A stretch of 64,000 nt of DNA. Origin: Phycisphaerae bacterium (GTDB lineage Bacteria > Planctomycetota > Phycisphaerae > Sedimentisphaerales > Anaerobacaceae). The notes under the pieces are model-generated. The model saw nothing but the letters and a program-made list of their open reading frames with translations. It was not told the DNA's origin and did no database searches. The position numbers were made by a program, and so were the translations under genes. The stretch spans positions 1 to 64,000 of the forward strand of contig JADHXR010000014.1 of the NCBI GenBank assembly GCA_016782865.1, given 5' to 3'. This document shows, one piece after another, positions 34,974 through 58,836 of this stretch (its first letter is position 1; each line of letters begins with the position of its first letter).

Positions 34974-36866
34974 ATGAAAACGCAAAGAACAACATGCAAA
35001 ACTAAATCTGCTGTTCACTCAGGCTTACCGGCCTTTACAATAGCAGGTATGATTGCCGTTGCCACGCTGGCGCTGCCTGCCGTGGTACACTCCCAGACAA
35101 CGGAGTGGACGGTTCATGACGTCTCCAACTCTCCTTTGCCCGACGACGGCATCGGTCCCCTCGTCTTTGATGCCCAGGGAAACCTGTGGATCGGCACTGG
35201 CGATATGGTCGGCGGTGGTAGAGGCTTGGCGAAGTTTGACGGAGAGAACTGGACGGTGTACAACACCTCTAACTCCGGGCTACCGTGTAATAACATTTTT
35301 GCACTTGTCCTTGATGCCCAGGAAAACCTGTGGATTGGTACAGGTGAGCCCTTTGGCGCCGGCGGCGGTCTGGCGAGATTTGACGGAGAGAACTGGACGG
35401 TATATAACACTTCGAATTCCGGATTACCCTGTAAGAATGTAATGTCTCTCGCATTCGATACCCAGGGTAATCTCTGGATTGGGACAGGTGACCCATTTTC
35501 TACAAGCAGCGGCTTGGCGAAATTTGACGGGGAGAACTGGACCATATATACCACCAAGAACTCCGGTCTGCCCTACCACATAGTCGATGCCCTTGCCTTT
35601 GATATCCAAGAGAACCTATGGATTGGTACAGTTGAGCCGGTTTGTGGTTCCGAGGCAGGTGGTTTGGCGAAGTTTGATGGACAGAACTGGACAGTTTACA
35701 ACAAGGCAAATTCAGGCCTGACTTCCAACGATGTCTGGGATTTACTCTTTGATGCGCAGGGCAATCTATGGGTCGGACACGGAGACGACTATCGTCCGGC
35801 GGGTGGGGGCTTGGCGAAGTTCGATGGAGAGAACTGGACGGTATATCATACATCCAACTCCCCGCTGACATGGCACATGGTTACTTCTCTTTCCCTCGAT
35901 GCCCAGCAGAACCTATGGATGGGGATGTGCAGTGCGCATACTTCTACCGGCGGGGTAGCGATGTTCGATGGAGAGAACTGGTTGGTCTTCAACGAGTCGA
36001 ATTCCGGACTTCCGCATGTCACTGCCACCGGTCTTGCCCTTGATCTGGAAGGAAACCTCTGGATTGGGACCTATGGCGGTGGCTTAGCTGTCTATCGTAT
36101 AGGACAGCAACTGCCCCTCGTCGACTTTAACGGCGACGGCATCGTGGACATAAAAGATCTCCTGAGACTTATTGAATCCTGGAGCCTGAACGATCCAACA
36201 GTTGACATAGCTCCTGCTTTTGGCGATGGAATTGTGGATGCTTTGGACCTGGAGCTTTTGATGAGCTACTGGGAACAACCTTTTGATGATCCTACATTGA
36301 TAGCACACTGGGCTTTGGACGAAGCAGAAGGTGCTGTCGCCTTTGACAATGCGGGTGTGAACGATGCGTTTGTTATTGGTGGTGCTGAGTGGCAACCCAA
36401 TGCCGGACAAGTAGATGGTGCGATCCAGTTGGACGGAGTCGATGGTTGTGCCGTTGCCGGCCCAGTCCTCAATCCGTCAGACGGTCCCTTCAGTGTTTTC
36501 GCCTGGATAAAGAGTGGTGCGCCTGGACAGGTCGTTGTGTCGCAACAGGGCGCGGCCAACTGGCTGACAGCGGATACCCACGGTAACTTGATAACAGAGT
36601 TGAAAAGTACTGGTCGCTCTGCAGGTCCTTTACTGTCTCAGACAGTCATCACCGATAGCCAATGGCACCGTGTCGGCTTCGTATGGGACGGTGCTAACCG
36701 GATTCTATACGTTGATGACGTCGCAGTAGCCGAAGACACACAGGATGGTCTGGAGAGTTCATCTAGTGGTTTGTACATTGGTACCGGAAAGGCCATGGAA
36801 TCCGGCACTTTCTTCTCCGGCCTGATCGACGACGTCCGCATTTATAACCGGGTCGTGAGCCCGTAG
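34974..36866 (+). CDS. Secreted seven-repeat propeller with dockerin-like and LamG domains
   Basis: A 630-aa exported protein (AAAGGATTGG before the ATG; signal peptide ending 'VVHSQ'). Residues about 42-380 hold seven repeats of about 48 residues with the pattern 'LAKFDGENWTVYNTSNSGLP' then 'LAFDAQGNLWIGTG', the two-component-regulator propeller repeat; seven units would close a seven-bladed propeller. Next comes a pair of EF-hand-like loops ('DFNGDGIVDIKDLLRL' and 'GDGIVDALDLELL'), i.e. a dockerin-like module, and finally a LamG/concanavalin-type domain ending 'GLIDDVRIYNRVVSP'. It is probably cell-surface or secreted and glycan-binding. The propeller is the sensor type but there is no TM helix or kinase here. 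Confidence 0.88.
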   Translation: MKTQRTTCKTKSAVHSGLPAFTIAGMIAVATLALPAVVHSQTTEWTVHDVSNSPLPDDGIGPLVFDAQGNLWIGTGDMVGGGRGLAKFDGENWTVYNTSNSGLPCNNIFALVLDAQENLWIGTGEPFGAGGGLARFDGENWTVYNTSNSGLPCKNVMSLAFDTQGNLWIGTGDPFSTSSGLAKFDGENWTIYTTKNSGLPYHIVDALAFDIQENLWIGTVEPVCGSEAGGLAKFDGQNWTVYNKANSGLTSNDVWDLLFDAQGNLWVGHGDDYRPAGGGLAKFDGENWTVYHTSNSPLTWHMVTSLSLDAQQNLWMGMCSAHTSTGGVAMFDGENWLVFNESNSGLPHVTATGLALDLEGNLWIGTYGGGLAVYRIGQQLPLVDFNGDGIVDIKDLLRLIESWSLNDPTVDIAPAFGDGIVDALDLELLMSYWEQPFDDPTLIAHWALDEAEGAVAFDNAGVNDAFVIGGAEWQPNAGQVDGAIQLDGVDGCAVAGPVLNPSDGPFSVFAWIKSGAPGQVVVSQQGAANWLTADTHGNLITELKSTGRSAGPLLSQTVITDSQWHRVGFVWDGANRILYVDDVAVAEDTQDGLESSSSGLYIGTGKAMESGTFFSGLIDDVRIYNRVVSP

Positions 36867-56925: not shown

Positions 56926-58544
56926 ATGAAAACCCAAAGCCCATTATCTTTGTTGTTACTTATCTGCTTAGTCTCGAACTTGGCGGCAGCCCTTGAGCAG
57001 TCGAGCGAACCTCCCACAATTCCTGTGGGCCTGGACGCCTATCGAATGTGGGACAAGCTTGCGTATCATCGCATCGGCATCCGCGCCTACATGCGCAGCA
57101 CCTACGACCGGGAGGGAAACAACCGAACCGCCGACGCCAGCCATTATCTCTACCAGGAATCGGATACGTTCAACGTGTCACTTGACGTGGAGGGTCCCGG
57201 CGTCTTGTACTTCAAGCGGACCAATCACTGGCACGGCAGCCCTTGGCATTACGAGGTCGACGGCGATGATTTCATAGTCAAAGAGACCGCTACCGACGAT
57301 CCGGTGGGTGCGAAGAAGAGATTCGAGAAGACAACGTTCATCCCCGAGGAGCTTTTTCCGAATCCGCTTACATGGACCTGGTCGACGACAAAAGGCGCCG
57401 ATCTGATGTGGGTGCCTTTGCCTTTTGAAAAGAGTTTTCGTATGGCCTATTCCCGCACGTTTTATGGCACGGGTTACTACATTTACCATGTTCTTTCGCC
57501 GGGCATGAAGAATATTTCCCAACCACTCCAGTCGTGGGACAAAACGCCGCCGGATCCCAAAGTGCTCGATTTGCTCAATCGTGCCGGGACCGACATTGCG
57601 CCGAAAGGGTCGGCTGTCAAGACCATCGGCGGCAAGCTGAGAGTGAGCCCCTATGAATGGATAACAGTGGCGGAGCTGAATGAGGCGCCCTCCAGCATTC
57701 GAGCGCTTAAGTTAACCGTGCCGCGGGATAGAGCCTATGATTTCGGCAAATGCCGCCTGCGCATCACCTGGGACCGACGCTGGCATGCGTCGATCGACGC
57801 TCCAATAGATCTGTTCTTCGGCGCTGGACATCTTTACAACAGCAATAATCGCGAGTACCTTGTCAAAGGCTTTCCTCTGGTGATTCGCTACGACGATAAG
57901 AACGTTTATCTGTCCTGCTACTGGCCCATGCCCTTTTTCCGTCATGCGAAGATTGAGGTTCAGGAACGACAAGGTCAGAGTACAAATCTCCTACGGCGGG
58001 CGAGCCCTATCTGCTGACCTCACGCTACGAGTTGGGTCCGGATCATCACGGCGCGCGAATGCACTTTGCCGCTGAGCAGGACCGGGTGCGAATCATGAAG
58101 GGGACATCGCAGTTCAAGATGCGCCTCGATCCCAATAACCTGGGCGTGATGCTGCGTCGCAAGTTCGATTACCTTTATCCGAACCAGCGCGCCAATGTAT
58201 GGGTCAGACCCGACAAGTCGGACGCCGCGTGGAACTATGTGGGACAGTGGTACACGGCGGGCAGCAACACCTGCGTGTACAGCTACCCCCGGTCCGAAGG
58301 AGAGCTTGGCAAGACCCAGCACACCGTCATAACAGGCAATCGCCGCTGGCGCGAAGAGGAGTTTCTCATTCCGCGTCACCTGACCGAAGGAGTCAAACGA
58401 CTCGCAATCAAAATCCAGCATGTGCCTGACAACAGAGAGCTTTTCCCGGGCCGGCCCTTCGAAGCCGAGTCGGCCTGGAGCGAGTCTCGGTATTGGGCCT
58501 ATTGCTACAAGATGCCCGAGGTCAAACTTACACAGCGGCATTAA
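56926..58544 (+). pseudogene. DUF2961 family protein, frameshifted near 57970-58010
   Basis: The first frame (56926-58017, 363 aa) begins with a signal peptide ('PLSLLLLICLVSNLAAA') and carries DUF2961 text: 'SDTFNVSLDVEGPGVLYFKR', 'IDLFFGAGHLYNSNN', 'VYLSCYWPMPFFRHAKIEV'. It then stops, and the family continues in another frame as 'GEPYLLTSRYELGPDHHGAR' through 'DSAAWNYVG'-type text to 58544. Between the two, the third frame reads 'KVRVQISYGG', so two single-base shifts may lie close together. Repaired length would be about 540 aa. DUF2961 proteins are exported, jelly-roll-like and include glycan-cleaving enzymes. Broken gene or assembly error. Confidence 0.75.
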
Positions 58545-58638
58545 GCCCGGACCCGTTGGCAAGCGGGACCCGCACCGAGCTAATCGGCGCAGGCCCCTAA
58601 CTTGTGCAAATCCTGATCGTCAGACAACACTCAAATTA

Positions 58639-58814
58639 AGGCACTCTAACAAAACTAGGTTCGTCACGAGGTCGAGCGAAAAGCCCAAGGCCAAGGCGGC
58701 AGGCGGAAAAGGCCCGGAGGCGTGCTGAGGCACGTTGAGGACGTTTTCCGCCGACAACGCGGGCCTTGGGCTTTGTAGCCGACCGTAGTAGATCATGGTT
58801 TTGTTAGAGTGCCT
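58639..58814. repeat. 176-bp nested palindromic (MITE-like) element
   Basis: The ends are perfect 17-bp inverted repeats, AGGCACTCTAACAAAAC (58639-58655) and its reverse complement (58798-58814). Inside, AAGCCCAAGGCC pairs with GGCCTTGGGCTT, and GGCGGAAAA pairs with TTTTCCGCC, around a central GAGGCGTGCTGAGGCACGTT hairpin. The whole unit can fold as one long stem with interior bulges. There is no ORF. It separates the DUF2961 and LamG genes. Confidence 0.8.
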
Positions 58815-58836
58815 AAGGCTGCGGCTGCTCGTCTGG

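What the first reader, a model, noticed from the sequence alone, without database searches (positions are those of the whole stretch)
58639..58814. 176-bp element with perfect 17-bp ends and nested internal pairing
At least three concentric pairs of arms (17, 12 and 9 bp) and a central hairpin occupy almost the whole unit. There is no coding capacity. It is the most regular unexplained structure in the window and could be a MITE, a structured RNA or a recombination site.
Basis: seen in the sequence. Interest (0 to 1): 0.6.

Follow-up and report, generated by a model that had tools for sequence, protein, structure and literature searches.

The report
Transposon hairpin with a portable core
This 174-base hairpin is a small non-coding mobile DNA element whose ends match an identified transposon, but its folded middle part recurs, with its base-pairing preserved, between the ends of several different transposons in distantly related bacteria, which suggests a transferable folded RNA or DNA module.

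Summary
The strict element is window 58640-58813 (174 bp): perfect 16-bp terminal inverted repeats (GGCACTCTAACAAAAC) flanked by a TAA/TAA target duplication. The genome has three copies (95-100% identical) at unrelated sites. Relatives carry a 903-904-bp IS5-family insertion sequence with exactly these ends, so this is a MITE (a small non-autonomous transposon) almost certainly moved in trans by that IS.

The unexpected part is the interior. It is not a deletion remnant of the IS but a ~140-nt structured core found in 28 of 294 sampled genomes of the phylum, and in Nitrospirae and Desulfobulbus-type records. It occurs between at least five different end sequences, with 3-bp TWA, 4-bp CTAG-like, 4-bp non-specific or (few copies) 6-bp duplications. 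Over 37 diverse cores, 43 of 46 pairs show compensatory change (covariation 0.69 versus 0.19 shuffled) and internal-loop motifs are conserved. Conversely, the same ends carry unrelated hairpins in relatives. Ends and core are separable modules.

No Rfam family matches. A possible relative is a Geobacter "short RNA element" family. The core's function is unknown; selection on a folded strand (RNA slightly favoured over single-stranded DNA) is inferred.

The parts
58637..58639 (.). left copy of the 3-bp target-site duplication (TAA)
   Evidence: sequence; duplication rule from other copies
58640..58655 (+). left terminal inverted repeat GGCACTCTAACAAAAC, identical to both ends of the IS5-family ISs L450, L451 and L563
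58658..58795 (+). structured core module (match to covariance model R1, of which this copy is a member)
   Evidence: 146.8 bits; homologues
58673..58679 (+). conserved loop motif CGAGCGA, left side of an internal loop (opposite AGCC around 58777-58780)
58680..58692 (+). 13-nt arm AAAGCCCAAGGCC, pairs with 58762-58774
58692..58696 (+). most conserved loop motif CAAGG (37-core alignment)
58702..58710 (+). 9-nt arm GGCGGAAAA, pairs with 58744-58752
58713..58741 (+). central conserved hairpin CCCGGAGGCGTGC-TGAG-GCACGTTGAGGA; tip stem 58719-58725 with 58730-58736 covaries
58753..58760 (+). conserved loop motif GACAACGC
58762..58774 (+). 13-nt arm GGCCTTGGGCTTT, partner of 58680-58692
58798..58813 (-). 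right terminal inverted repeat (reverse complement of the left one)
58814..58816 (.). right copy of the target-site duplication (TAA)

Best explanation
It is a MITE. An IS5-family transposase, made by a 903-904-bp IS with the same ends, recognises the GGCACTCTAACAAAAC ends in trans, excises or copies the element, and inserts it at TTA/TAA, duplicating three bases. SHOWN: multiple copies, ends identical to the IS, TWA duplications, interior not derived from the IS. INFERRED: the trans-mobilisation step. Between the ends sits a portable ~140-nt hairpin module. The same module is found between ends that match or resemble other transposases, so it has repeatedly been joined to new ends. SHOWN: shared core, different ends and duplication types, same ends with other interiors, one MITE inserted inside another. 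INFERRED: the joining route, most simply nested insertion or recombination between palindromes. The module is kept because its folded single strand matters to the element. My most likely reading is folding in read-through RNA, with the conserved loops contacted by a host or element protein, making insertions tolerated or mobilisation efficient (about 0.45). A folded single-stranded DNA intermediate is next (about 0.3). The confidence given is for the MITE-with-IS-partner-and-portable-core claim, not for the function of the core.
For: Copies and duplications: (IS5-type ends: 14 of 20 elements with a 3-bp TTA/TAA repeat). IS partner: 16/16 at both ends in L450 and L451; PF13340 2.7e-27, PF01609 7.4e-20; NF033580 IS5 family; third IS, 904 bp, L563; ends present in 22 of 89 family genomes, reversed-pattern control near zero. 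Core homology; sequence-only profile with reversed decoys, (no decoy hit). Structure: (90.7% of cells paired, 43/46 pairs with two-sided change, covariation 0.690 versus 0.185 shuffled, at most 0.123 slid). Module swapping: many ends; 3-bp TWA; 4-bp CTAG-type 6/8; 4-bp non-specific 11/15; 6-bp in 2 copies; same ends, unrelated hairpins; IS1380 IS L458 shares CCCGCATTTCTCAC with a core-bearing MITE in L574; IS1182 IS L466 resembles the MITE ends of its own genome, 15/17.
Against: No autonomous IS with these ends is in the window's own assembly, which is 84% complete and fragmented at repeats. Trans-mobilisation was not observed. The strand signal for RNA is weak: G-T versus A-C mismatches 45:24 (p 0.015) and 82:54 (p 0.02), with the end repeats showing a similar lean. 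No promoter or terminator was found. No bias in flanking-gene orientation, so no evidence of a host role.
Confidence: 0.85

Rival explanations
1. Ordinary MITE whose interior has no function. The palindrome is kept by hairpin-templated correction and by survival of recently amplified copies; resemblance across phyla reflects recent horizontal spread.
For: Copies are multi-copy and recent within genomes; no flanking-gene orientation bias; the same ends also carry unrelated hairpins; hairpin correction is known to perfect palindromes (general knowledge).
Against: Correction would remove the mismatched internal loops, yet these are the most conserved positions. Arms differ freely between families while pairing is kept. 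Families with different ends and duplication types share the core.
Confidence: 0.2
2. Folded single-stranded DNA module: the hairpin extrudes on single-stranded DNA (lagging strand, conjugation) and helps a transposase or host factor bring the ends together.
For: Near-complete palindrome with ends at the stem base; association with several transposases; end repeats show the same mild strand lean as the core.
Against: DDE transposases of the IS5 and IS1380 type are not known to need a folded interior (general knowledge); the IS itself lacks the core; a G-U wobble is conserved at one pair (30 of 37), which fits RNA better.
Confidence: 0.3
3. Host-serving cis element: 3'-end stabiliser, terminator or insulator of neighbouring genes.
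For: The window copy lies 3' of the flanking genes on both sides, 95 bp after one stop codon and 23 bp from the other; comparable MITE RNAs are reported to affect neighbouring mRNAs in Neisseria and Yersinia (cited in PMC10969869, PMC2229807).
Against: Among 56 copies with called neighbours: 13 convergent, 15 divergent, 12 co-directional, 16 opposite (crude ORF calls); no terminator signal.
Confidence: 0.1

Closest known systems
IS5-family insertion sequences (NF033580 type; L450, L451, L563) and MITEs derived from such ISs
   Same: identical 16-bp ends and the same 3-bp TTA/TAA duplication
   Different: the interior is not an internal deletion of the IS but an unrelated structured core
Chunjie MITE of Geobacter uraniireducens (178-235 bp; described in PMC10969869)
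   Same: multi-copy bacterial MITE of similar size, with TIRs and duplications
   Different: its sequence could not be obtained here, so homology of the core is untested
Family of 24 'short RNA elements' in Geobacter metallireducens with central palindrome GRCGTAGCGCTGCTACGCC (PMC2700814)
   Same: the central palindrome resembles the tip hairpin of several cores here (e.g. GCGTAGCGGCGCTACGTT in L184); also reported in other deltaproteobacteria
   Different: not described there as mobile, nor linked to different transposon ends; only the printed palindrome could be compared
ERIC, NEMIS/Correia, RUP and other small bacterial mobile repeats with structured transcripts (PMC2229807)
   Same: 100-200-bp elements with inverted repeats whose transcripts form long stem-loops
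   Different: to my knowledge each has its own ends and a narrow host group; here one core is combined with several end types across phyla

Membership tests
MITE (miniature inverted-repeat transposable element) | short (<500 bp), with terminal inverted repeats | tested here: met
   174 bp, perfect 16-bp TIRs
MITE (miniature inverted-repeat transposable element) | target-site duplication | tested here: met
   TAA at the window copy; TTA/TAA in 14 of 20 elements with these ends
MITE (miniature inverted-repeat transposable element) | dispersed copies at unrelated sites | tested here: met
   3 copies in the genome with unrelated flanks; copies in relatives
MITE (miniature inverted-repeat transposable element) | ends shared with an autonomous element that could move it | tested here: met
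   IS5-family ISs L450, L451, L563 in related genomes; none found in the own incomplete assembly
MITE (miniature inverted-repeat transposable element) | no transposase or other coding capacity | tested here: inconclusive
   only short overlapping ORFs; no codon-level test was run
MITE (miniature inverted-repeat transposable element) | demonstrated mobility in trans | not testable with these tools
   needs a transposition assay
Internal-deletion derivative of the IS5-family IS | interior homologous to the IS interior | tested here: not met
   R1 finds no match in the 904-bp IS L563; the DNA search with the window element did not list the IS loci of G031 or G034
Rfam structured RNA families | match to any of 4227 families | tested here: not met
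   nothing above a gathering score in the element region or in 12 diverse loci
Functional structured RNA (as a kind, not a family) | covarying pairs with conserved loops | tested here: met
Functional structured RNA (as a kind, not a family) | transcription and action as RNA | not testable with these tools
   only a weak strand asymmetry
REP/RAYT palindromes | 20-40-bp palindrome with a tagging tetranucleotide and a RAYT transposase | not tested
   size, long TIRs and target duplications already point to a different kind

The most novel reading that the evidence does not exclude
The core is a previously unrecognised, transferable selfish module: a folded RNA (or single-stranded DNA) of about 140 nt with conserved protein-binding-like internal loops that has repeatedly been joined to the ends of unrelated transposons (IS5, IS1380, probably IS1182 and others) and so spread through several bacterial phyla, independently of any one transposase.
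Probability: 0.4. Interest if true: 0.78.

Novelty: new variant of a known kind. Interest (0 to 1): 0.57.

Why it matters
Bacterial MITEs are usually regarded as decayed versions of one parent IS, with a meaningless interior. Here the ends and the interior evolve as separate modules: one structured core is served by several transposases with different target rules, and one set of ends carries several unrelated hairpins. If the core has a function, it would be a new class of structured element spread by borrowed transposons, and it is directly testable with a two-plasmid transposition assay and RNA-seq. If not, the family is still a clean system for studying how hairpin MITEs acquire new ends.

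Tried and rejected
Rfam families: nothing above threshold. Autonomous partner through unpaired ends in Desulfobulbales/Nitrospirae genomes and in G036/G031: only solo or truncated ends, plus an IS630-like element inserted inside a MITE (L433), which I rejected as the driver because it has its own ends. IS1380 transposases in G104 and other genomes with CTAG-type MITEs: found only in the own genome, without matching ends. Plasmid and phage collections: no match. Viral contigs by pattern: mostly chance matches in coding sequence; only L285 and L335 hold likely cores. Gene-orientation bias as a sign of host function: none. Intrinsic terminator or sigma-70 promoter: none. The IS5-type group was first guessed to be IS1031-like from memory; I keep only 'IS5 family, NF033580 type'. 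The suggested empty-site comparison for the window copy was not run; target duplications across copies were used instead.

Full report
OBSERVATION. The unit is present as described and folds far better than shuffled sequence: DNA z = -9.75; RNA z = -10.2 and -10.7 on the two strands. Comparison of copies places the true ends at 58640 and 58813, with perfect 16-bp inverted repeats GGCACTCTAACAAAAC and a TAA duplication on each side.

COPIES. The genome (7.25 Mb, 240 contigs, 84% complete) holds three copies at 100, 98 and 95% identity with unrelated flanks. It also holds two further families with different ends but a related interior: one with ends GAGGGTGTTTCAAAAGTTG and one with ends GGTGCCTCTAATAATTGC.

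AUTONOMOUS PARTNER. Searching DDE transposases in related genomes and scanning their flanks gave two 903-bp ISs, L450 and L451, whose ends match the window element at 16 of 16 positions on both sides, each flanked by TTA/TTA. A third, 904 bp, is in L563. L450 and L451 encode an IS5-family transposase in two overlapping frames (PF13340 and PF01609; NF033580). The end sequence occurs exactly in 22 of 89 genomes of the taxonomic family, against almost none for the reversed pattern. Of 20 elements with these ends, 14 have a 3-bp TTA or TAA duplication. This makes the window element a MITE of that IS. The autonomous copy is not in the window's own assembly, so present-day mobility in this organism is not shown.

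THE INTERIOR IS NOT FROM THE IS. Model R1, built from 17 cores, finds nothing in the IS L563. In relatives the same ends carry quite different interiors: the IS itself; the window core (L559, L560); a short core variant (L558, L561); and unrelated hairpins containing GTCATTCTGAGCGnAGCGAAGAATCT or similar (L554-L557, L562, L564 and others).

THE CORE HAS MANY ENDS. R1 finds the core in 28 of 294 sampled genomes of the phylum. An exact-pattern scan plus R1 also finds it in records labelled Nitrospirae, Nitrospira, Desulfobulbus, Desulfurivibrio and other deltaproteobacteria. A profile without any structure also recovers most families at significant E-values (own second family 6.5e-7, own third family 1.8e-9, Desulfobulbus 1.8e-14, Nitrospira 3.3e-16), with no hit among reversed decoys. 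Some, such as the IS1380-ended group, rest mainly on the covariance model (L574: E 0.0015 by sequence; the same stretch, held as L569, 55 bits by model). End sequences differ widely, and so do the duplications: 3-bp TWA for three end types; 4-bp CTAG-like for the CCCGCATTATTCACGAG type (6 of 8); 4-bp non-specific for the GAGCCTCTTGCAAAATGA type (11 of 15); TA for a small group (4 of 4); 6 bp in two copies of the own third family. Different duplication lengths imply different transposases. Independent pairings support this: an IS1380-family IS (NF033539) shares CCCGCATTTCTCAC with a core-bearing MITE, and an IS1182-family IS (NF033551) in G006 resembles that genome's MITE ends at 15 of 17 positions. 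The IS1182 link is suggestive only, because the flanks differ (CTAG versus TWA).

STRUCTURE. In 25 close relatives, 20 of 47 predicted pairs show compensatory change. In 37 diverse cores 90.7% of cells pair, 43 of 46 pairs change on both sides, and covariation is 0.690 against 0.185 shuffled and at most 0.123 for slid structures. That alignment was fitted to the model and leans towards it, but the size of the effect and the sequence-only control make an artefact unlikely. The internal loops contain the most conserved motifs: CAAGG, CCGgAgGCG, CGTtGAGGA, GA..ACGC, GAGCGA, GCAGCC; averaged over all columns, paired and unpaired positions are about equally conserved (0.67 and 0.66).

RNA OR DNA. 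If the + strand acts as RNA, G-T mismatches in stems should exceed A-C. Counts are 45:24 in a strand-neutral hairpin alignment of 40 cores (p 0.015) and 82:54 within families (p 0.02). The end repeats show a similar lean (25:12), related copies are not independent, and copies found by a model that tolerates G-U are biased towards it. I treat this as weak evidence for RNA. One pair is a G-U in 30 of 37 cores.

HOST ROLE. With crude gene calls there is no preference for convergent, divergent or tandem neighbours and no terminator or promoter signal. Nothing indicates a service to the host.

HOW ENDS COULD BE EXCHANGED. L574 shows a core-bearing MITE with IS1380-type ends inserted in the interior of a MITE with the window's ends, and L433 shows an IS630-like element (named from its protein sequence by eye, not by a family search) inside another copy. 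Nested insertion with later loss of the inner ends is a plausible route; it is inferred.

KNOWN WORK. Bacterial MITEs with stable stem-loop transcripts are well known (PMC10969869, PMC2229807). [quoted passage not shown] an exact-string search of the held library found only that paper. I could not compare full sequences. I found no description of one structured core shared by MITEs of different transposases, but the literature available here is incomplete.

LIMITS. Most genomes are metagenome assemblies; some low-copy occurrences could be mis-binned, though several genomes have tens of end pairs. Taxon names come from record titles. Duplication classes assign elements by end similarity with a few mismatches allowed.

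Noticed in passing
L554-L557, L562, L564, L568, L570, L572, L573: The window's ends also flank unrelated hairpins (GTCATTCTGAGCGnAGCGAAGAATCT or GTCATTCCGAGCG type, 108-184 bp), a second interchangeable interior.
   Followed up: partly
L433:252-1560 (G036:C223): An IS630-like element with its own ends (ACAAACTAGTACTCC) is inserted inside a core-bearing MITE.
   Followed up: partly
L442:777-809 (G036:C200): A collapsed copy consisting of the two end repeats joined head to head (AGAGCCTATCCGGTTATTCGGATAGGCTCT), a deletion remnant of the hairpin.
   Followed up: no
L574:158-510 (G368:C306): Nested elements: a MITE with the window's ends is interrupted by a core-bearing MITE with IS1380-type ends; the outer right half seems lost.
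   Followed up: partly
L147-L150 (own genome, contigs C57, C43, C9, C106): A third core-bearing family in the same genome with ends GGTGCCTCTAATAATTGC and, in two copies, 6-bp duplications (CACAAG, CTCAAG).
   Followed up: partly
window 56926-58544, + strand: A DUF2961 gene seems split into two frames (ends at 58017, may continue at 58032), by frameshift or assembly error.
   Followed up: no
window 35160-36067: At least six imperfect tandem repeats of about 144 bp, perhaps coding for a repeat protein.
   Followed up: no
window 30290, 30629 and 52680: A dispersed 64-bp repeat containing ACATTGGATGTTCCTTGTTCGATATTCGATATTCC.
   Followed up: no
L285 (9079, 13679) and L335 (745, 5418): Two contigs catalogued as viral each carry two core-like hairpins; they may be proviral or misassigned.
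   Followed up: no
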